A stretch of DNA of 64,000 bases, taken from assembly GCA_033220425.1 (NCBI GenBank), contig CM065652.1, forward strand, positions 4,092,001 to 4,156,000, given 5' to 3'. The DNA comes from Lepraria neglecta. Taxonomy: Eukaryota > Ascomycota > Lecanoromycetes > Lecanorales > Stereocaulaceae. Every line of letters begins with the position of its first letter. The first letter of the stretch is position 1. Positions 15,089-39,856 of the stretch are shown piece by piece. A model generated the notes under the pieces. It was not told where the DNA came from, did not search any database, and saw nothing but the letters and a program-made list of their open reading frames with translations. The position numbers were made by a program, and so were the translations under genes.

Positions 15089-16163
15089 CTACGCTGGCTT
15101 CCTTCCAACTGTGACTTCGAGGATGAAGTGGATGGCCGCCCCCTCCTTCGCTTCCTGGGCCGCCGCCTGGATTCGTCGTCGATGAGCTGGCCCACTTTTC
15201 TGGGGGCCGCTATTGTCCAGTGCAATGAAGCTAAACTCCTCTGCTACCATGCATTGCACCTGAGTGAAGAAGCCTCGCACTTCGGGACTTGATGGGTAGG
15301 GGTTGTGAGAGACATTCTTGAACCCCTGCTGGGTGAAGCTGTCGCCAAGGCGAGGGGGCCATCTATAGGGCAAGTATCAGTAACTGTATTTTGTGAGCAA
15401 CATGGAGTCTGACCCAAATTTCACCGCGCCTCTGGCATGATCTGCCAAATACTGTAATTCGCTGTTCTTTATCCCCGGTTTGACAGACTCGACAGTCATG
15501 GTTGCAAGATTGTGCTCAAACCACTGAAGATAGCCGCCTGGCTCTGCGTGTAGCACAATTGCAAAATTAGCCTCGTCATATAGTGGAGAGTTGTGTGCGT
15601 AAGAGGGTACGGCTACTGACTCAACATCTCCATGAGGTTTTCAAGGATGGGCAAAGGATTGTCATTCTTCACGACGGTGAGGAACAAGCGTACGTGTACG
15701 ATGTCGTATTTGCCTTTGAGCTCTTCAGGAACCGGTTTGTGAACGTCAAGCGTCTTTAGCGACACATTTGCAGGCAACCACTCCTTGGGAGGATACTGGT
15801 CCGCCGAAACATCGAAGCCGTCAAGGCGGGCTGATGGCAATTGGCGATTAACATCTATGAGCCAGATGCTAAAGAGATTTCGTTCAGCAGTGTTTCCTGG
15901 ACACGTCGAAGCGAACATTACCCCGTGCCCGTTCCAACGTCAGCTATAGCGAAGTCTTTGTTGTCCTTAACTGGTATGTCTGGATGGATGTTGTAGCCAA
16001 CAACGTCCTTCCAGAGATAGTGTTGAAGGTTCAGCCTTCGAAAGTGTCAGTTCGGAGAACTCAACATGATGTGAAATATCTAGCTGTACCTTGAGGACGA
16101 TGAGAAGCTTCGTCCAAGGACATACCCATCAGTGTCGTACGATGAGGTTGCTGCCGAAGCCAT
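15089..16163 (-). CDS. UMTA-type SAM-dependent methyltransferase 1
   Basis: Five exons (16163-16090, 16035-15922, 15868-15621, 15543-15414, 15362-15089) give 279 residues. The N-terminus GRSFSSSSRLNLQHYLWKD matches the UMTA-like fungal methyltransferases. SAM motif I is ADVGTGTGIW, split by intron 2. It is followed by GFDVSADQYPPKEWLP, YDIVHVRLFL and PGGYLQWFE. The family methylates small molecules in fungal secondary metabolism, with LaeA as a distant relative. The substrate is unknown. Intron phases 2,2,1,2 are identical to those of the second copy at 19654-20706. Translation is unbroken after splicing. It is probably cytosolic or nuclear. Confidence 0.88.
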
Positions 16164-19653: not shown

Positions 19654-20706
19654 TTATTTGTCAAAATCTCCGCGTGGCTTTCTTCCTGTGACGACCTGAA
19701 GAGTATGCCTGATCGTAGCCCCTTGTTGAACTTCAGCATAAACGGCTTTAGCAAGCTTCCTGATCTCATCACCACTTCCAGGCGGTCCTTTCGCATCAAG
19801 AGAATTAGTGGCAAATTCTTCCGCCAGCACCAACTCCAAGTCCATAAATATCCGACTAGATGAGAGGTCCTCGTTGCGCCGCAAGACCGATACATGGGTA
19901 AGTTCATGGCTTCTGAAGATCTCAGGAAGGGCATAAACCCATCTGGATCATGTGTCAGATAAAAGAGCATTCCTTCGCTTTCAGTAGCTTACTTATGTAT
20001 ATCGCGTTTCACGAAGTCTGCTAGTCTTTGAATGTTCTCCCTGGGCGCGGAAGGCCTGCTAGTCACCACGGTTCGGGCGTGCAGGTCATACTCCTCCCAT
20101 TGAAGTAGTCCCCCTGGCTCTAGGATTCGTTTGTGAGATGTTCGTGAAAGGCCGAGCGGAAGGAAAATATAACGTACTCAGAATCTTGAGACAATGCCGA
20201 AGGATTGGTGAGGGATCATTGTCATCGATGACTACCAGAAATAATCGAATATGTACGACATCATATCTGCCATGCAAAGATTCCGGGGGCTCATCAAAGA
20301 CATTCCACACTCCGAGTTTAACGTTACCCGGCAGCCATTCTTCCGGGGGATAACCTGAGGACGACACGTCGAAACCTTCGAGCTGTGTTGAAGGAGGCAA
20401 GCTCTTCGCAAGATCCAGCAGCCAAATACTGGGAACAGAAGAATTTAGCTTTCAACACGACATGTGTGTACCTCATGCCTGATCTTTACCCTGTACCGGT
20501 CCCAATATCGGCAACCTTGATGTTCGGCTCCCTCAAGGATGCATCGGGGCTTATGAGATAGTTCAAGCTCTCTTTCCAAAGGTAGTGCTGGCAATTCAAT
20601 CTGCGTTCTCCCTGAGATCAGTTCTATATATGCTATGAGCATATTATATTATGATGTACCTAGTCGCTTCCGCATAACCTCTTCCAAGAGCATATTCGTC
20701 CGCCAT
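19654..20706 (-). CDS. UMTA-type SAM-dependent methyltransferase 2
   Basis: Five exons (20706-20660, 20600-20490, 20428-20178, 20119-19993, 19942-19654) give 274 residues. It begins MADEYALGRGYAEATRLN and has LNCQHYLWKESLNY, SAM motif I ADIGTGTGIW, GFDVSSSGYPPEEWLPGNV, YDVVHIRLFL and PGGLLQWEEYDLHA. The C-terminus RHTLQVVTGRKP matches HFILEVTVGRKP in copy 1. It is a clear paralog of the gene at 15089-16163, with all four introns in the same places and phases, so the pair arose by gene duplication and not by retroposition. The reaction is methyl transfer from SAM to an unknown small molecule. The frame is intact. Confidence 0.9.
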
Positions 20707-23818: not shown

Positions 23819-25622
23819 TTACTCAGAACACAGCCCGATAGCTCCATCCACCACTCCCCTCCAACTCAACTTCACATCCATATCATGCTGCTCAGTGACG
23901 AAATAACTTTCATAGCGCCACTCTCGTCTTGGATCCGAAAGGCATATCTGCAATCCCCGTCAGCAATGGCCAAAAAAAAACCAAAAAACCAAGAAAACAA
24001 AACGCAACAACAACATCTTACATCAAACAAGCCAAAAAGCGTAGGAACAAGCTTATAAATTTCCAAATACGCAATTGGCCTCCCCAAGCACGACCTCGTC
24101 CCATACCCAAACGCAATATCCGCCCTCAACATCCTCTTAGCCCTAGCCTGGAAACCATCCTCAGTCTCATCACTAGCCTTGAGCCATCGATCCGGATTGA
24201 AAGCATTCGCATCCTGCCCGAAGACGTCCTCATTTTGGTTGATGGTCCAGCCATTCATGCTTACAATGGTGCCTGGTTTCAATTCTCGACCATCAGGGAG
24301 TTGCAGACCTGCTGGAGAGACGACGCGTTCCAGTAGTACCGAGGTCGGCGGATGGATGCGTAGGGCCTCTTTGACAACTGCGTCGAGATATGTGAAATCC
24401 TGTGCTTTTTTCCAAGAGACGGGATAAGTGAGTTTAGCATCGTCGATTTCTTTCTGCAGTTTTTTTTGCACGTGATGGTTCTTCGATAGGTAGTACACGA
24501 TTGAGCGGAGGGTGATGGATACAGTGTCCGAGCCCGCGAGCAGAATCGTCATGATATATCCCACCACTGCTGCATCAGGAACCTGGTCCGGATGAGCGCT
24601 TTTGGCCTCTAGGATGCGGGACACGATGTCCGAGCGGTCTTTGTCTTCCCCAATAGAGTCTCTTCCCGTCTTCTCCTCGGCCAGCCGATCTCTGAATAGT
24701 TTGCCTGCTCGGATAGAAAAGGGATCGGACTTTGCGGAGAACCAACGCACCAGAGGATTTTTCCACAGGAATTTGTCAAGTGAGGGCATTTGGCCTACCT
24801 TTGGCGTTCATTAGCTTTTGAAGCACTTCAAGGAAAACGATGCAGGGCATACGATAGCGCAGTATTTGAAATTCCGCCCGAGATTTTTCATCATGTCATC
24901 CATATCACACCCATGTTCCAAGAACCCGAACGACCGACTGAAGGAGAGTCCGCTCATCACGTCGAAGGCAACTTCAGCGATCTGTCAGCTATGACATCCG
25001 CACAGATGTAGCGCTCTCACAACCCACAGTATGAAAGCCAGTGGTCAATATCGCAACTTCTCCGTGCGCCAGACCCATCTACGAAATCGCGGCGCAGGAT
25101 TTTTATCAGGTCGCTAATCGTCCGGTCAACTAGCGGCTCAAAACGCGTAAGCGTGCTCATAGCGAAGATGTTAGCGACAGGTTTCCTCAATCGAGCGTGC
25201 GTCTTCTTGTCTGTGACGGTCAAGAGCGTGGGTACAAGCTCCCCATTGTGATATGTCTGCATGACCTTGTAGAAATCGCTCTTCACCGTGCATCATGTCA
25301 GCTGAGAAGGTGACCGCCAGGAAGGGGCAGCCACACCGACCTTTGGGAGATCTGCTTTGACGCCATAAATGCACTCGATGGCATCTGGGTCTGTAAGGCT
25401 AACAATGTTTGGTCCTGTGCGTACAATGTTCCCATGACGACGATGTAAATCCTGTACCGTTCGCTCGTAGTGCCCTTTCCATGTCTCAATCAGACGCCAG
25501 AGGTTCGAGAACTTGGCAAGGAATGGCCCAGGGATTTCTCTCAGACCCGGAGCATAGAAATTAGATGAGAGATGTAAGAAAAGTGCAATTCCTAAAGCAA
25601 TTGAGATTTGAAGGATTAGCAT
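23819..25622 (-). CDS. Cytochrome P450 monooxygenase, 519 residues
   Basis: Five exons (25622-25341, 25280-25028, 24971-24853, 24798-24022, 23947-23819) give 519 residues. An N-terminal membrane anchor is followed by the proline-rich hinge REIPGPFLAKFSNLW. The I-helix motif is LLAGSDT, the K-helix ExxR is KEALR, the aromatic region is FNPDRWL, and the heme-binding loop is FGYGTRSCLGRP. The second intron was placed so that WLSY continues into FAFDVM, the usual family sequence. Closest known style is the pisatin-demethylase-like class of fungal P450s, bound to the ER and using NADPH-P450 reductase. The substrate is unknown. The location among methyltransferases and a prenyltransferase suggests a role in secondary metabolism. 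Confidence 0.9.
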
Positions 25623-27721: not shown

Positions 27722-28690
27722 ATGGAGGTTCCGCAGCTCCAATATAGAGTCCCCAAGACGGGTTTCATGTCGTACCTTCCACATAGTTGGGTTCCATACG
27801 CCGAACTCGCACGCGTCGATAAGCCTGTGGCATGTCTATACCTCTATTTCCCATGCATTTTTGGCACTGTGTTGGCGGCCTCAATCAGCGAACCTATAAT
27901 ACCACCCACTCGCCTCCTGAAAGCTAATGCCATATTCATTCTTGGTTCTGTTATGGTTCGATGCGCTGGTTGCACGTGGAACGACATCGTCGATCAGGAC
28001 TTCGATCGAAAGGTTTCACGAACACGACTTCGTCCCATGGCTCGGAGAGCGATCTCGACCTCCAATGCTTTGGTGTTCACCGTCGCCCAGGTTCTAATAG
28101 GGCTTGGATTGGTGGTGTTGCTATTGTCAATGCAGTGTCTCTATTGGAGCATTCCATCCATTCTTCTCACCGGGTTATACCCATACGGGAAACGGTTCAC
28201 GCACTATCCACAGATTATACTCGGCTGCGTCTTCTCCTGGGGAGTGGTCATGGCATTTCCTGCTTTAGATATTGATCTGCTGTCTTCCCCGGAAGCCATG
28301 ACTGCAGCTGGCTGCCTATTTCTATCATGCACCGCATGGACCATGGTCTACGACACCATATATGCGGCTCAGGATATCAAAGACGACGCCAAAGCAGGAG
28401 TCAGGTCTCCTGTTGTCCGGCATCAAAACCACACGCGCAGGCTGCTTATGGGAGCTGCCTTGGTTCAGATAGCTTTGCTGTGTTGTACTGGCGTCGCCAT
28501 GGAAGCTTCTTTCGGATATTTCATCTGCACATGTCTTGGCGCCACCTTGATGTTGGGAGGAATGGTGAGGATGGTCCACCTGGACGATCCGAAAGATTGC
28601 ATCTGGTGGTTCAAGAAGGGCTGTTTCTACACTGGGGCTGTTATTGGTAGTGGTTTTATTGTCGAATACGTGGTGCGTGCAAATAGCTAA
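27722..28690 (+). CDS. UbiA-type prenyltransferase, 322 residues
   Basis: Single-exon integral membrane prenyltransferase of the UbiA superfamily. The first Asp-rich motif is NDIVDQDFDRKVSRT (Asn87, Asp88, Asp91, Asp95) and the second is YDTIYAAQDIKDD (Asp211, Asp217, Asp221-222). Both bind Mg2+-prenyl diphosphate. The N-terminal ELARVDKPVACLYLYFPCIFG is typical of the COQ2 and meroterpenoid branch. At 322 residues without a mitochondrial leader it fits better with a secondary-metabolism prenyltransferase than with COQ2. About eight to nine membrane helices are expected. The aromatic acceptor is not known. No polyketide synthase, the usual acceptor supplier, is in the window. Confidence 0.92.
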   Translation: MEVPQLQYRVPKTGFMSYLPHSWVPYAELARVDKPVACLYLYFPCIFGTVLAASISEPIIPPTRLLKANAIFILGSVMVRCAGCTWNDIVDQDFDRKVSRTRLRPMARRAISTSNALVFTVAQVLIGLGLVVLLLSMQCLYWSIPSILLTGLYPYGKRFTHYPQIILGCVFSWGVVMAFPALDIDLLSSPEAMTAAGCLFLSCTAWTMVYDTIYAAQDIKDDAKAGVRSPVVRHQNHTRRLLMGAALVQIALLCCTGVAMEASFGYFICTCLGATLMLGGMVRMVHLDDPKDCIWWFKKGCFYTGAVIGSGFIVEYVVRANS

Positions 28691-29358: not shown

Positions 29359-30234
29359 ATGCTCAAAGTCGCCATCCCTCGAACACTCCCACGCCTCGCT
29401 GCCAAACCACTCACCTCCGCTTCCATCCCAACGCGAAGACTCCTCTCCCAATCCACAATCCGCTACGGCAAAGATCCCAAAATGTCTACCGGACCCCCCA
29501 AACACGAGATGGCCTACTTCCCCAACATGACTTCGGCCCTACCGTCGTCGTCTGCGGAGTTTCGGAGGGTACTCTGGACGGGACTGTACTCGCAGGTTGT
29601 GTTGATGACTGTGCCTGTTGGAGGGGATATTGGTGATGAGGTACGTTGTCCCGGTTCCCTTGGATGTTATGGGGGCTTCGCTTGCCTAATTACGTCGAAG
29701 TCTGCTGTTTGGGTGCTAGGGCTAATTTTCTACAGGTCCACACCGTCGATCAGGCTCTGACCTTCACGTCGGGAACGGGGAAAGCTACAATCAATGGGAA
29801 AGACCAGGATGTCAAAGCTGGAGATCTCATGGTCGTGCCTGCGGGAACTCAGCATCAATTCGTCAATACTGGTCCCACTCCCTTGGTAAGCACACCTTCT
29901 CCCCCCTTCCTCCGCTTCTTTCCGCTTGGAGGTCCAATCTTGAATCAGACGAAAACTGACACGACTACTACAGATCCTCTACACCATCTACTCGCCCGCC
30001 GAGCATAACCCCCAAACTGTCCACCAAACAAAGGAGGAAGGAGATGAGGAGGAGGATAATGGAAAAGATGAGGCACCAGAATGGAGTCGGAAATGGTACT
30101 TGAGCATTGCATGGTTATTTACAGGCTACTTATTCGCTGACTGGCTAAAGAGGGATATCACAGTATCGCAGGCTGGTGGGGAGCAGGAGCGGTATGAATC
30201 CAAGAATATGAGAACGAATAGGGAGAAGTCTTAG
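29359..30234 (+). CDS. Cupin-domain protein, 230 residues
   Basis: Three exons (29359-29640, 29736-29885, 29974-30234, all junctions phase 0). The central beta-barrel carries both cupin motifs: GGDIGDE then VHTVDQALTFTSGTGKATINGK, and PAGTQHQFVNTGPTPL. It ends with YTIYSPAEHNPQTVHQTKEEGD, the usual signature of this widespread cupin family. The first 41 residues are Arg/Ser-rich and may be a mitochondrial leader. A second ATG at 29482 would give a protein without it. An unusual C-terminal hydrophobic segment (WYLSIAWLFTGYLFADWL) suggests a membrane tail. The metal ligands (Glu, His residues in the motifs) are present. The substrate is not known. Confidence 0.88.
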
Positions 30235-30428: not shown

Positions 30429-31805
30429 TCATATTGCAAGACCAGATTGCCACCAATTATCCCCCCAATAGACTCGGGGGATTATTCCCTGCCACGTCCA
30501 CCATCCATTTTGCGCCGGCCCGAAGCCCAAACATCGTAGAGGGCTAAGCGGCAGGGGTTCGATGAGCCACATTCCGCCTCGAGCATACTCGTCCGCCATC
30601 AACCAAAATGTCAGCCGCAGCCAAATCACAGTAAAGATTGACTTTCCGATTCGGTCAAAGCTCTCATTGCGGCTTTTAAGAAATAGACCTCGTGCGGGCA
30701 GCATTACCAACTCTTGGGCTACCATACCGACAGGCTGAGCGAGAAAGAAGAAGAAGACATTCAAAGGCGACGTAGAAGGCCATTGTGTGTAGCATCCGCA
30801 CGTGCCACTCAAGGAGAAGGCAACGAGAATTCGCAACGCCTTCGCTGTTTTACTGGATCGAGCGATGTTCAGGCGGTCAGCCACCCACAGACCAGGTGAA
30901 GAAAACCCAAATCGGAACATTTGATGCCACCATAGAGCCCAGAAACCTTGTAAACCCTCGTCAAGTATTGCTTGGATAGGGCCATACGCAAAAGCGTACA
31001 TCCATGGCTCGCCGAGAGTGCCGACTAGGGAAGGTCCGAGGATCTGCACAAATACGAGAGGAGCTGTGTCGAAGATAAGCATGTTAGCTATCAAGAATTT
31101 AAGGAATGATACGAAGATGTGGTAGTGGCGGGAGATTTTGATATAGGATTCCAAATGGAAGATACCTAGATCTGAAGGATTATCAGTGATACCCCAGAAG
31201 TATGGATCCGTCTTTGCAATTATGTTGAGAGCGTCGAGGCTGAGATACATGAAAAGCAGCCACGCGACTGCATTGAATGGGCGACTTTTGGAGATACGAA
31301 CACTCGAATGAGAAACTGGGGGGATCTGAGACGATCGCCAGGACCAATGTAAGCCGCGGAGACTAGTCACAAGGTCCACTGTCCAAGCAAGTCGCTTCCA
31401 GAAGGGGTCGGGCATATATTCCCAGACGAGTTCTAAATCTCTAATTTCCAGGCTTGATCCCAGGATTTGTGATGAAGTACTCGATCCATTTGAGAGGTCC
31501 GGATTGGGTAGCGTAAGGGTGTCAACGTCTTCCACTCCCATTTTATTGGCCGTGTTATGACGGGTCTGTTTCTGCGATGCTTTGACAAGTCTGCAGAAGG
31601 TTTGATGGGGGACATGAAAGATCATGAGAGTGGCCGACCACACAATACACCAAGATGATGCGATGCCAACGAGCACACCGTAGTCCAAACCCAGTGTTCT
31701 GCAACGACTCATAGTCGTTATGGAAAGCCAGACTATCGCGAAGAAAACGGCGTACTTCGACCGCTGTGCCAGTCTCGTACGGGCGTAGAACAAATATAGA
31801 ATGAG
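30429..31805 (-). pseudogene. Wax-synthase-like acyltransferase, 3' part, cut by transposon
   Basis: This is the larger part (about 456 codons, single frame, no stop) of a multipass acyltransferase of the fungal wax-synthase-like group (MBOAT_2 type). Family traits are a run of hydrophobic helices and the block WWHQMFRFGFSSPG with its conserved His. Related enzymes acetylate terpenoid or meroterpenoid alcohols (AusQ, TRI7 class). The 5' part with the start codon lies at 34942-35073, on the other side of the Mutator-like element. The 9-bp target duplication 31797-31805 is counted here. The frame is open through the duplication on both sides and would be continuous at 499 residues without the insert, with no other lesion visible. 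The insertion therefore looks recent. The gene cannot make its normal protein as it stands. Confidence 0.85.
31797..31805. repeat. Target site duplication, left (TAGAATGAG)
   Basis: Nine bases directly beside the element, identical to 34942-34950. A 9-bp duplication is characteristic of Mutator-like elements. Confidence 0.92.
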
Positions 31806-31904
31806 CGGGAAGCCCTGGGGGCGCAAAAACAGAGCGCAACGCAACTTTCGGATTTAACAGGGGGTACTTATGTTTACTAGGAGCTCTCACGAAATATGAA
31901 GTAC
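31806..31904. repeat. MULE terminal inverted repeat, left
   Basis: About 99 bp, matching the reverse complement of 34821-34941. The outer 55 bp differ at only a few positions, and the inner part (GTACTTATGTTTACTAGGAG) matches after a gap of about 28 bp in the other end. Confidence 0.85.
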
Positions 31905-32053
31905 CTATGGTTTGGAGCTCTGCATGGCACATTATCGCTCCAACTGAGCATGCTATCGCTATTGAATACTCGTGATACATGACATCATGAGTCACACGGC
32001 TCCCACGGCTGTACTGCAGGGCCACTCCACTCCACATGCTCCTTATCTAGCTT

Positions 32054-34687
32054 TCAATCCACCTGGAATGCAGCCTTCAGTATCCGCTCCTGCTGTGACT
32101 CCCGCTCATCCACTTGCTCCGCTGGTATTTTGAGGTTCGTTTTCGACCTCTTCTTTAGTGGAAGAGGTTGCATGTCCTCCAGGGTCTCCTCCAGGGTAGG
32201 CCCTCGGGGTCGCTGTCGTGATTGCGATAACCCTTTGGCCTGCTCCCACGTTTTCTTCTCTTTTACCTGACGGCCTGTCCTGGTCATTATGGCCGGAGCG
32301 GAGGATGAGGGTGGCTCATTGGCTGGGAGTAGAAGGGCGGAGGATAGAGGTGGCTCCGCCGAAGAGGGTGGAGGAGCAGAGGGCGGAGGCCTATTTGTAC
32401 TGCCTTTCGGGCGCCCACGAGGTTTTCGGATTTGTGGTATTGGAGTAAGCTGAATACTGTAAGGAGTAGCTGTTTGATATATAGAGTCCTGTTGCTCCTG
32501 TTGCTCCTATTGCTCCTTCTGTCGCTTATCCCGCTGTTGAGCTTCCTTCTCGGAGGCTTCTGCAGCCGTAAGCTTTCGAGCATTGGCTTTATCATGCTTC
32601 TTCTTATCTTGCAGAGTATTCCACTGCTGTTTCTTAGTAGGGGGTAGAGCAGGCAACTCGGTCGGAATACCCTTACGATTTTTCTGGATAGCTTCGTGAG
32701 TACTCGTTACATTGACTTGAAAGGTAGCTAGCTGATTAGCTAGCTGATCGGCTTGCTGTCGAGGTAAAGTCTTATACAATTCGTCTATCTTCGCCGCCGC
32801 CTCCAAGTACTTATTCTTCCCTGTTTCTCGAAATATTGAGGGGTTTTGTGAGTTAGGATCCAACGTATCATCATAATATCGAGGCCACCACTCGTATGGA
32901 ATGGGCACATCATCTATCCACCATCTAGGGTGGAAGAGAGATAACGGGATAGGGAAGCCGTCGTTGCAAGCTCTGAAGAGAAGGTGTTTACAAGGTAGCA
33001 GATATCGGACGAGGATATCGCAATTGCAAGGGCCGTGTACACGCTCATAAGTAGGAGAGCTCCGCTCCTCCACTAATTGCTTTGTTGCAATCCACTCGGG
33101 ATTGACATACTCGAGGGCCCAGATAGTAACTTTACCAATGATAATTTGGAATGCAACAAAGTCAATAGCCCTCGGCCGATCAATACGTGACCTCGCTATG
33201 TCTTCTCGGATCTGCTTATACCACAGCTTGAGCTCTGCTTGCATCGATTTCACGGCATTCTCCAGTGTGGCTTGAGGATTCATCACTGCTTTTAATACAG
33301 GGTGCATGCTCTCATTGCGCTGTGTAGAATAAGCCCCCAGATTTCGATAATTCTTCGTATAGCAGGTAACCACGTATTGCTCTTTGTGAAACCAGTGCTC
33401 ATAGAAGTACTCCTTCTCCCGCTCGTGGAATAGCTTTAATAAAGCCTCCCGGTTCTCTTGTAGAGTGATATAATCAGGTGATTGAGCCCAATCCCATGCT
33501 GCATCATAGATTTGTTGTCTTCGCTCATATGGATAGCTTCGGCTCGATTTGTTAACCCTCGCACGGATATTTCCGACAGCATGCCAGTTACATAGCTGCA
33601 GCTGGCAATCTGGGAGCATAAGAGGAAGCGAAGCAAGGAGGCCTTTGCCCTGATCTGAGAGGTTAATACGAGGTGTAGGACAATCATTGAATACCTCCTC
33701 TTTTAGTATTTTAAAGAAGAAGTTGAATGCTTCTTCTGACTCCGAAGTAGCGAATGAGAAAGCAGCTGGAAATGTACGATTCGTATTAGTCACACCCACG
33801 GCTACAAAGAGCAATAATTTGTGAGAATTCGTATTGAATGTAGCGTCGTTCTGTACCATGAAATTACTGCAGAAGCGCTTAGCCAGCTTCTGCTGGAATT
33901 TGTCAATAATAACGATTTGCTCGAGTATCCTTTTCATAGGGGCTCCGGCTTCATTCCTGATGTAAGAATAGCGCTGTCTGGCTATGAAATCCTCGTCATC
34001 TAGTACGGCCAGTAGCCCGGTGATAATCTCCTCCCTGGAACGTGTGGTTGTAGGAATGAGGTTATAGTACTTCTTCTTCTTCAAAGTCAACACCTCGTCT
34101 GGCTCCTTCGGAGTATGGTGGAGCACACGCTGTGACTGCTTATATGTCAATCCGCTTATCCTATTAGTCCTCGCAAGCAGGATAGCTTTCGCGTACTCCG
34201 GCTGGCGTTGCATGTGGAGCTCATAGTCGAGAGGATTGGGATTCAAATCATGCATGTGATCCTGACAGCCCACTCCTAGTATCCATGTTTTTTCTTGCCC
34301 ACCTCGCTGGAGCGATCTGAAGCTGATATAGGCGTGCCAGGTACACCCTTTTGCTTTGATTGTGGTCAACTCTTGCCTACGGATAGTACCGTGCTCGGGG
34401 TCTTCCTCCCCTGTGTGCTCTGGAAGCTTCCTCCAATTCTTCGTCTCTTTGGAATGGTGGATACATTTATAGTTCTTCCTCTCTCTTCCACAGGAGCCAG
34501 TGACGATAGCGAAGCCCTGACTGAAGGCGTAGTCTTGTAGCCGGGTCCACGCATCGTCCGGGGTGTCAAAGACTTCATTCTTTTGAGGAGGAAGGAGGTG
34601 TGCTGGAGCGAGGCGGTTTATAGCCTTCTGGAGGATAGGGTGGAGGTCTAGCTCGAGCTGAGGGTGTGGCGTCCATACATCGGCCAT
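32054..34687 (-). pseudogene. MULE transposase with one in-frame TAG
   Basis: The frame is open from ATG 34687 to a TAG at 32507-32509 (726 residues) and continues in the same frame without another stop to 32054. In order: an N-terminal FAR1/WRKY-GCM1-like zinc region (Cys75, Cys115, Cys141, His residues near 144-146), the MULE DDE catalytic domain with Asp281 (VQNDATFN), Asp345 (LSDQGKG), the CNWH block at 366-369 and Glu459 (STQRNES), and a SWIM zinc finger with CNC at 554-556 and CKH at 566-568. A basic Gln/Lys-rich tail follows. Beyond the TAG lies an AT-hook-like IRKPRGRPKGSTNR and a basic tail. The catalytic core is complete, so a protein lacking only the AT-hook might still be active. 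The change is consistent with CAG to TAG. Confidence 0.85.
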
Positions 34688-34820
34688 GTTAAATAGCTGG
34701 TAGAGTAGGAATTGTAGGAGGAGCAGCGCAATAGGTTGTGAGAAGCATTGTGGGTGGCTGTAAGCGAATAGCTCTAAGGAGAAAGAAAAAAGCGGTGTGG
34801 GATAATATTCGAATTGGATT

Positions 34821-34941
34821 GGTACTTTATTTTTGGTGGGAGCTCGTAGTAAATGTAAGTACTTTACTAATATGGCTATGTAACTCCGGTTAAACCCGAA
34901 AGTTGCGTTGCGCTCACTATTTGCGCCCCCAGGGTTTCCCG
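34821..34941. repeat. MULE terminal inverted repeat, right
   Basis: About 121 bp, the inverted counterpart of 31806-31904. It carries an extra stretch of about 28 bp around 34864-34891. Confidence 0.85.
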
Positions 34942-34950
34942 TAGAATGAG
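34942..34950. repeat. Target site duplication, right (TAGAATGAG)
   Basis: Identical to 31797-31805 and directly beside the right end of the element. Confidence 0.92.
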
Positions 34951-35073
34951 TAGCCCATAGTTATATAGTGCATAGGGGAATATGAACGGGAGGACCTCAT
35001 TGGAATTGATAGCTTGGACCCACTGCAACTGATACTGACTGATCAAATTTTGCGAAGATGATGGACGAGCCAT
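34942..35073 (-). pseudogene. Wax-synthase-like acyltransferase, 5' part with start codon
   Basis: ATG at 35073 opens 44 codons that end exactly with the target duplication. The sequence LQWVQAINSNEVLPFIFPYA leads into the first membrane helix. Beyond the duplication the frame runs into the MULE end and stops at about 34876. The codon phase at the duplication is the same as that of the 3' part at 31805, which is the strongest evidence that both belong to one gene. Confidence 0.85.
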
Positions 35074-37887: not shown

Positions 37888-39856
37888 TCAATTATCATCT
37901 CCATCATCTTCGGTCCCCTCTCGATCATCGAAGGTCATGAACGCTGCACCATCATCCCCAACAATTCTCTGGTACGCAGCCCGTACATGTTTCAACACAT
38001 CATCTTCCAATGCCAAGCTAGGCGCAAGATCAGGGAGCTGCAGGACGTGGTCGTTAGAAGATTGGGCACATGCGATGTTGGTCTCGTAGTCGTCAGTCGT
38101 GGCTGGAAGGGCGCATTTCTGATCGTAGTGCATGTACCAGAGGATTGTTGCTGGTACGTTTGCAAGCAGTTTTTCGACAGCGGTTTGAAGGAGGTGGTGA
38201 GCGTCGGCGTAGACATGGTGGAAGGTGTAAGCATAGATGACGTCTGCAAGGTTGGTAGTCAGCTACTAATCCCTGCAGCCGTTCTATGAGCAGAAGAATA
38301 GGGGGGGAAGCGTTGATCAGACTGTCAGAGGTTTATTATCTTCAATGAAGTTGCAGACAATGTAGATAAGTATTCGTTATGTTTGGTCATCATGAAAAGC
38401 TTCGGGATTAGAGAACGGACGGTGATCACTTACACTGGCCAGCAGGGCATTCCCCTGTATCGCTCGAATGGATCATTAGATACACTGGAGGTGGATCAGC
38501 CTTCAGGGTACTGGGCGTCTGGGATTCGGACTCGAGCTCGAGCGTTCCGGTAGGATAGACGACGACGGCACCAGCGGGCGGAGGGGCGCCTTCTGCCGGA
38601 GAAGGAAACAACTGGGGTAGTGATCCGGAAACGATAGTGATGCTTCGGGCGACATAGTTGGGTTGTATGCTGTCCCCAGTGTCCTGATGAGCCTGCAATG
38701 GCAGATCCCAGATTGAACCCATAACCCAACGGCTCTGAATTTCTTCTCCACCTTGTAGTTTGACAGTTAATAGTCCTGTGTCTTGGTCGAAGTGGATACC
38801 ATCCCGGACTGAAACTTGCTGATCTGACTGTTCATCCGTCTCGAAGCCTCTCTTGAGTACATAGACACCACCACCTACGGCTCCAGCACGGCAAGCCACC
38901 TGTGCTATCTCCGCAAGCCCGCCCCATTTCGGTATCACAGCTCCGAAGCTAGGACCAAACATGCCTATCGAGGTGAGGTGGCGATGGATACGGGGGAGTG
39001 CGTAGGACGTCAGAGTTTCTGCCGGCGTATTTGGGGATGATGTCAAAGCGAGTAGAGGAGCCTGTAGTTGGGGTGGAATGCTGAGAGGGACTTGGAGGAA
39101 TTCAGGAAACGGCTTGTTGCCAAACTCTTCCAGTATCGACACATGAGCTTCCGAGTCTGCGGCTAGCTTGAGAAACCTCATAAGTGACCTCGTCGAGCGT
39201 AGATCGATGCTCTTATCCGCAAAGACATCCTCTCGTCCTCCGGCTATTCTTTTTAGACTACTTTTACGTGCTGTATGCCCTTCGTTTGGCCACTTCTTCG
39301 TTTCCTCCTCACTGTGATGGATCCACCAACTTCCAACAGCAAGGAACTCGAGCTGGCGATAGACCTTCGAGGACACAAGGGCTGGGAGGAGGTTCGAGCG
39401 TGTGTAAATCAACTGCGGGGCCAAGGAAAGGCTGTAGGCTCGAGAAAAGCCCAGTTTGGGAGCTTGTTCCGCTGCATTTGCTGACGTCTCTTTCTCTAGG
39501 TTCCTGATGGTCGCATATCTGAATGGCGATGGTCCAGTATCTGTCAAGCTTGTTAGAAAAACGAACAACTCAGCATTTTGCCCACAATGATACACACCTT
39601 CGTCAGCAGTCTCAGCCCATGTCTCCGCCTCTTGCAAGCTCAACGCTGCTTCTAGCCCTCCATAGTAGTCATTTTTGTCGATATGAAGTACCTTCTTGCC
39701 AGACCGTGACAGCGCTCTTCCTCAAAAGCTGCGTCAGTCAGAGATGCCGACTTTCCACACTTTGCTTGGGAAATAGGCTTACAATGCGAGAAGAGATTGA
39801 GACAGACCTGTGCCAGCGAGAACGACGTCCCATACTGTGTCAGAGAGCGACTCCAT
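37888..39856 (-). CDS. MRS6: Rab escort protein (geranylgeranyl transferase component A)
   Basis: Four exons (39856-39783, 39716-39598, 39540-38434, 38243-37888) give 551 residues. The N-terminus WDVVLAGTGLSQSLLALALSRSGKKVLHIDKNDYYGG is the FAD-fold-like start of the GDI/REP superfamily. LAPQLIYTRSNLLPALVSSKVYRQLEFLAVGSWW is diagnostic for REP. A long insert before the second conserved part (MFGPSFGAVIPKWGGLAEI) is normal for REPs as opposed to GDIs. The C-terminus ends in an acidic tail (FDDREGTEDDGDDN). REP presents newly made Rab GTPases to geranylgeranyl transferase II in the cytosol and is essential in yeast (Mrs6). It is the clearest housekeeping gene in the window and is intact. Confidence 0.93.

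What the first reader, a model, noticed from the sequence alone, without database searches (positions are those of the whole stretch)
30429..35073. A young Mutator-like transposon splits a wax-synthase-like acyltransferase gene in frame
Both sides of the 3136-bp element carry TAGAATGAG (31797-31805, 34942-34950). Without the element and one copy of the duplication, the minus-strand frame runs uninterrupted from ATG 35073 through 44 codons into 456 further codons with no stop. The codon phase matches exactly across the gap. The gene was therefore intact when the element landed, and no further decay has followed. This is the clearest single event in the window and would be a natural presence/absence polymorphism of a biosynthetic enzyme.
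Basis: partly seen in the sequence, partly recalled or inferred. Interest (0 to 1): 0.75.

Follow-up and report, generated by a model that had tools for sequence, protein, structure and literature searches.

The report
Young jumping gene splits acyltransferase gene
In a fungal genome a recently moved, nearly undamaged jumping gene sits inside a membrane enzyme gene; this is an ordinary kind of event, but the enzyme gene also lacks a key active-site residue, so it may already have been disabled before it was hit.

Summary
A 3136-bp Mutator-like (MULE) element at 31806-34941 is flanked by TAGAATGAG. Codon phase matches across it, and each half resembles the matching part of one uninterrupted paralog in the same genome. 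Seven full-length copies were found, each with its own 9-bp duplication. Five show textbook repeat-induced point mutation (RIP): 58-66% of CpA sites converted and dozens of stops. The window copy and a twin on contig C1 (2 mismatches in 3136) are essentially untouched, so both look recent. The five other MBOAT_2 genes found in this genome all carry an active-site motif histidine; here alignment puts a three-residue gap over it. Such a lesion beside so young an insertion suggests, but does not prove, that the enzyme was already lost or altered. Orthologs and the empty site could not be examined, because no relatives of this genome are held. The species, the product and any gene-cluster role are unknown. 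Verdict: an ordinary kind of event, well documented here; new member of a known kind.

The parts
31806..34941 (-). 3136-bp Mutator-like element (transposase on minus strand)
   Evidence: 7 full-length copies found in the genome
31797..31805 (.). target-site duplication copy TAGAATGAG
34942..34950 (.). target-site duplication copy TAGAATGAG (last 3 of the 44 upstream codons)
31806..31870 (+). terminal inverted repeat, left (about 65 bp, 86% to the right one)
   Evidence: self-match rows; letters
34877..34941 (-). terminal inverted repeat, right
   Evidence: self-match rows; letters
32507..34687 (-). transposase frame, 726 aa, MULE domain; ends in a stop at 32507-32509 shared by 3 of 7 copies, a sense codon in the other 4
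32054..32506 (-). in-frame continuation of about 150 codons behind that stop
34942..35073 (-). upstream coding part of the MBOAT_2 gene, 44 codons from ATG 35073; today it reads 21 codons into the element and stops
30429..31796 (-). downstream coding part, 455 codons plus stop, MBOAT_2 domain; ATG at 31712 opens 427 aa of it
30795..30809 (-). place of the MBOAT_2 SG..H-type motif; histidine missing (three-residue gap in the alignment to the C6 paralog); coordinates worked out by hand

Best explanation
Shown: a full-length, essentially RIP-free MULE copy inserted, with a 9-bp duplication, into an MBOAT_2 acyltransferase-like gene of a fungus. By comparison with the C6 paralog it lies near the first hydrophobic segment. 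The insertion cuts off the first 44 codons, whose frame now ends after 21 more codons. Shown: five sister copies were heavily RIPped, apparently independently, while the window copy and its C1 twin were not. Inferred: these two copies moved after the lineage's last effective RIP round, so the insertion is recent and should be polymorphic among isolates. Shown by alignment: the gene lacks the active-site motif histidine, apparently by loss of about three codons in frame. Inferred: that lesion most likely predates the insertion, so the element landed in a gene whose usual acyltransferase chemistry was already lost or altered, and the insertion may have cost the fungus little.
For: Insertion. Seven copies, 7 of 7 with own 9-bp duplication. 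RIP: CpA converted 224/386, 240/386, 256/386, 235/383, 247/384 in the five sisters, against at most 33/282 CpG, 4/375 CpC and 2/480 CpT; twin 2/386. Stops in the 878-codon frame: 45, 48, 58, 56, 52 against 2 in each young copy, the end stop included. Sisters share RIP hits in numbers close to a rough independence estimate in the 10 pairs, e.g. 192 against 179 and 183 against 198. One gene: downstream part matches the C6 paralog (E 2.1e-54); upstream part matches just before it in the same frame (E 0.30 in the genome search; score 66 against a maximum of 53 in 2000 shuffles). Histidine: present in 5 of 5 other MBOAT_2 genes, absent here; gap placed over it by global alignment; register score of a 13-residue segment, chosen after seeing the alignment, reached by 52 of 100000 shuffles.
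Against: The order of histidine loss and insertion is inferred, not shown. The frame is otherwise open and Pfam still scores the domain above cut-off (45.9 against 25 bits), which fits either very recent loss or retained use. Hhat keeps about half its activity without this histidine, and GUP1 lacks it (PMC2890405, passages). In a frame comparison of the motif stretch the gene's own frame scored best for 2 of 5 paralog motifs, another frame with an LH pair for 2, and two other frames tied for 1, so a pair of compensating frameshifts is not excluded. RIP is not fully efficient (general knowledge), so two untouched copies could be escapees. Both differences of the twin are RIP-type, so that copy may have been touched.
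Confidence: 0.62

Rival explanations
1. One reading: a working acyltransferase gene was freshly knocked out and nothing else is wrong with it; the histidine loss, if real, came after the insertion or does not matter.
For: 455 open codons, base composition by codon position close to the UbiA gene and the C6 paralog, domain above Pfam cut-off.
Against: Motif histidine missing while 5 of 5 paralogs have it. With so young an insertion, a first later lesion falling in frame exactly on that motif is unlikely (inference).
Confidence: 0.22
2. A histidine-less MBOAT_2 subfamily that kept another function (pseudoenzyme), now knocked out by the element.
For: Open frame; exceptions to the histidine rule exist (GUP1; Hhat mutant partly active; PMC2890405 passages).
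Against: No ortholog could be examined: viral contigs gave no pattern match; genome contigs, which holds bacteria and archaea, gave 3 pattern matches, none a relative.
Confidence: 0.2
3. A shortened protein is still made from ATG 31712 (427 aa), driven by the element or by a cryptic promoter.
For: ATG 31712 opens a 427-aa frame that keeps the whole MBOAT_2 match.
Against: No expression data were available; the motif histidine is missing anyway. N-terminal truncations of the MBOAT Hhat were inactive and less stable (PMC2890405, abstract passage).
Confidence: 0.08
4. The two untouched copies escaped RIP, or came in by a cross or transfer after the sisters had been RIPped, so lack of RIP dates nothing.
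For: RIP is not fully efficient (general knowledge); DNA methylase matches lie at four places, so RIP may still be possible.
Against: Apart from changes of C to T or G to A, the sisters differ from the window copy by only 1-4 transversions and 2-5 sites where the sister keeps C or G, so all are copies of nearly one sequence; the twin is 99.9% identical.
Confidence: 0.2

Closest known systems
Fungal Hop-group MULEs (Hop of Fusarium oxysporum; group 35 of PMC6446971)
   Same: Transposase with MULE domain, 9-bp duplication (8-11 bp stated for MULEs; 9-10 bp for the Ascomycota Mutyl subgroup), moderate terminal repeats (PMC6446971, passages). Both termini contain GGGAA, fitting the GGNAA terminal consensus reported for Hop1 and VdMULEs (PMC3441728, passages).
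   Different: No tree was built, so the subgroup is not established; the young copies carry an in-frame stop ahead of a tail of about 150 codons.
RIP-inactivated transposon families of filamentous ascomycetes
   Same: CpA-to-TpA conversion on both strands and many stops in five sisters; GC lowered from 48.6% to 39.4-41.2% in the three sisters measured.
   Different: Two copies of the same family are virtually untouched.
   Same: Domain above curated cut-off; WWHQ block and C-terminal WWQSGLA block shared with the C6 paralog.
   Different: Lacks the motif histidine found in the five other members found in this genome.

Membership tests
Mutator-like element (MULE) | MULE transposase domain | tested here: met
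   PF10551 E 1.5e-16, 61.1 bits, cut-off 27.6
Mutator-like element (MULE) | 8-11 bp target-site duplication | tested here: met
   9 bp in 7 of 7 copies
Mutator-like element (MULE) | terminal inverted repeats | tested here: met
   about 65 bp, 86%
Mutator-like element (MULE) | current activity | not testable with these tools
   near-identical twin elsewhere suggests recent movement; no expression or mobility data
Hop subgroup | place in the MULE tree | not tested
   no reference transposases were fetched
RIP-affected repeat family | C-to-T changes concentrated at CpA, both strands | tested here: met
   met for five sister copies; the twin of the window copy has 2 such changes against it
MBOAT_2 acyltransferase | Pfam PF13813 above cut-off | tested here: met
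   45.9 bits, cut-off 25
MBOAT_2 acyltransferase | conserved active-site histidine | tested here: not met
   absent in the window gene, present in 5 of 5 others; identity of the residue rests on alignment, not structure
MBOAT_2 acyltransferase | acyl transfer | not testable with these tools
   no assay; structure prediction did not complete

The most novel reading that the evidence does not exclude
In a genome whose five other detected full-length copies were heavily RIPped, a MULE lineage with a transposase cut short by a stop keeps moving between RIP rounds. It has just produced two new insertions, one inside an acyltransferase gene already stripped of its catalytic histidine and one upstream of a G-alpha gene. 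Lack of RIP would then work as a clock for insertions of the present clonal lineage.
Probability: 0.3. Interest if true: 0.42.

Novelty: new member of a known kind. Interest (0 to 1): 0.27.

Why it matters
It is a clean, relatively datable transposon knock-out with untouched and RIPped sisters side by side in one genome, a possible marker for telling clonal from sexual history. It also warns that an open reading frame on both sides of an insertion does not show that the gene was functional when it was hit. Beyond that the event is ordinary.

Tried and rejected
Species: not identified. A 5.8S family search found nothing, a 20-base ITS-region primer pattern recalled from memory found nothing, a ribosomal protein L3 exon matched 7r81, 8oo0 and 7olc best among solved ribosomes, which names no species, and a paper search by assembly size listed 8 papers, none holding the size term. 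A named metabolite or mycotoxin: no claim made; I saw by eye no polyketide or peptide synthase among the frames of 150 aa or more, but the window was not fully annotated. Frameshift instead of codon loss at the motif: another frame contains an LH pair; against five paralog motifs the gene's frame scored best for 2, that frame for 2, and two other frames tied for 1. I hold codon loss more likely because the gene's frame aligns with the C6 paralog on both sides of the gap; the alternative is not excluded. Solved structures: the profile of six MBOAT_2 proteins matched none at E up to 10. Relatives outside the genome: viral contigs no pattern match; genome contigs 3 pattern matches, none a relative.

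Papers. Seen in passages: PMC6446971, PMC2890405, PMC8061759, PMC3441728. PMC4434069 was searched for six terms, none found. All others only in the listings; one search listed none. I make no claim that a thing is not in print.

Full report
What is there. The window lies at C7:4092001-4156000 of an unnamed 42.0-Mb, 11-contig genome. A 3136-bp element at 31806-34941 is flanked by TAGAATGAG on both sides and has terminal inverted repeats that match at 86% over 65 bp. Its minus strand encodes a 726-aa transposase with the Pfam MULE domain, E 1.5e-16. That the host is a filamentous fungus is my reading of the genes and of the RIP pattern; no call names it.

The interrupted gene. On the minus strand ATG 35073 opens 44 codons that end exactly at the end of one duplication copy, and 31796 begins 455 codons and a stop in matching phase. 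I checked phase by coordinates and translated the parts apart. As the DNA now stands, the upstream frame runs 21 codons into the element and stops. The downstream part carries MBOAT_2 (PF13813), E 7.2e-12; the 41 codons upstream of the duplication gave no Pfam family.

Do the halves belong together? A 539-aa open frame on contig C6 matches the downstream part (32% identity, E 2.1e-54). Just before it, in the same frame, it matches the upstream part (37%, E 0.30, run with a permissive cut-off of 10). Pairwise, the upstream part scores 66; 0 of 2000 shuffles reached this, and the highest was 53. The second, an empty site in a relative, cannot be run: the genome has no relatives here, viral contigs gave no pattern match, and genome contigs gave 3 pattern matches, none a relative.

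Age of the insertion. A DNA search found 7 full-length copies, a lower bound by the tool's own note. Each has its own 9-bp duplication: 5 delimited by script and 2 read by eye from printed flanks. The copy at C1:2434036-2437171 differs from the window copy at 2 of 3136 positions. Both are CpA-to-TpA in the C1 copy, and both change an amino acid of the transposase. The other five differ at 242-294 positions, of which all but 1-4 per copy are transitions. Taking the window copy as reference, they have lost 58-66% of its CpA sites (224/386, 240/386, 256/386, 235/383, 247/384). Other contexts changed at 12% (CpG) or less, and the five carry 45-58 stops in the 878-codon transposase frame. Numbers of shared hits in the 10 pairs of sisters are close to a rough estimate for independent events. 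This is the pattern of RIP, acting separately on each sister. Setting aside C-to-T and G-to-A changes, the sisters are 1-4 transversions and 2-5 other sites from the window copy, so the whole family seems to have spread recently. RIP is described as linked to the sexual cycle and as acting on repeats over 400 bp and 80% identity (PMC3441728, passages). Two untouched copies beside five sisters at 90-92% identity therefore suggest that both moved after the last effective RIP round. I give no date, since no rate was measured.

A wrinkle in the transposase. The 726-aa frame ends in a stop at 32507-32509 shared with the C1 twin and one RIPped copy. The other 4 of 7 copies have a sense codon there, and about 150 further codons follow in frame. 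At 33865 the young copies carry T where 4 of 5 sisters keep C; in all there are 10 sites where both young copies have T or A and at least one sister keeps C or G. The source of the young copies may thus have been lightly touched by RIP. Whether the short transposase works is unknown.

Was the gene intact? A Pfam search of the genome, run at E up to 1, gives six MBOAT_2 genes above cut-off, the window gene included; a seventh, sub-threshold row lies beside one of them and reads as its other exon. In 5 of 5 others the motif reads SG or SA, two residues, then H. The window gene reads SGTCGCYTQW, with no histidine in that block. Global alignment to the C6 paralog puts a three-residue gap over the histidine. 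The register behind the gap scores 25, reached by 52 of 100000 shuffles, for a segment chosen after seeing the alignment. A frame comparison was less clear: against five paralog motifs the gene's own frame was best for 2, a frame with an LH pair for 2, and two other frames tied for 1. Compensating frameshifts are thus not excluded; in either case the histidine is not in the present frame.

That this is the catalytic histidine rests on alignment and on two papers about MBOATs, not on a structure. The residue is described as present in all MBOATs, by one paper with the exception of GUP1, and as needed in LPATs and ACATs, though Hhat keeps about half its activity without it (PMC2890405 and PMC8061759, passages). 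Structure prediction did not complete, and no solved structure matched by sequence.

Order of events (inference). The insertion is too young for much neutral decay, and the rest of the 455-codon frame is open. A first later lesion that is in frame and falls exactly on the active-site motif would be a coincidence. I therefore think it more likely that the motif was lost first, either in a dying gene or in a variant with another use. Only orthologs or an insertion-free allele can decide.

Surroundings. On one side lie a UbiA prenyltransferase gene (27722-28690, E 2.5e-50), a P450 piece (23872-24789, E 2.5e-45), a cupin match (29640-30008, E 4.7e-12) and methyltransferase-like pieces, one of them with a sub-threshold Pfam match (15613-15939). 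On the other side lies a GDI-like gene (38426-39721, E 5.8e-15). This could be the edge of a metabolite cluster, but no product can be named and I do not claim one.

Verdict. The event is a well-documented, young MULE insertion of a known kind.

Noticed in passing
L002 (C1:2432536-2438671); G-alpha exon at L002:62-427, minus strand: The twin young copy lies roughly 0.9 kb upstream of the likely start (read by eye, L002:618) of a G-protein alpha subunit gene (PF00503 E 9.4e-30 for that exon; the first 81 codons gave no family).
   Followed up: partly
G000 contigs C1, C4, C5, C6, C7: The 5 RIPped copies lie 54-225 kb from the high-coordinate end of their contigs; the two untouched copies lie 607 kb and 2.43 Mb from the nearest end.
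   Followed up: partly
32507-32509: In-frame stop in the transposase shared by the two young copies and one RIPped copy but not the other four.
   Followed up: partly
G000 contigs C2, C4, C6: Thirteen further rows of MULE relatives at 24-48% protein identity; 11 of 13 contain in-frame stops, mainly TAG and TAA.
   Followed up: no
15089-15939 and 19654-20451, minus strand: Similar-looking gene pieces (by eye), perhaps a tandem duplication of a methyltransferase gene; of three pieces scanned, one had a weak sub-threshold Pfam match and two had none.
   Followed up: no
27722-28690: UbiA prenyltransferase in one frame; scores 257 bits to TIGR01474, under its cut-off of 275.
   Followed up: no
C1:4579567, C5:384310, C4:1123940, C3:3036865: Four places with DNA methylase (PF00145) matches; which, if any, is the RIP enzyme was not determined.
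   Followed up: no
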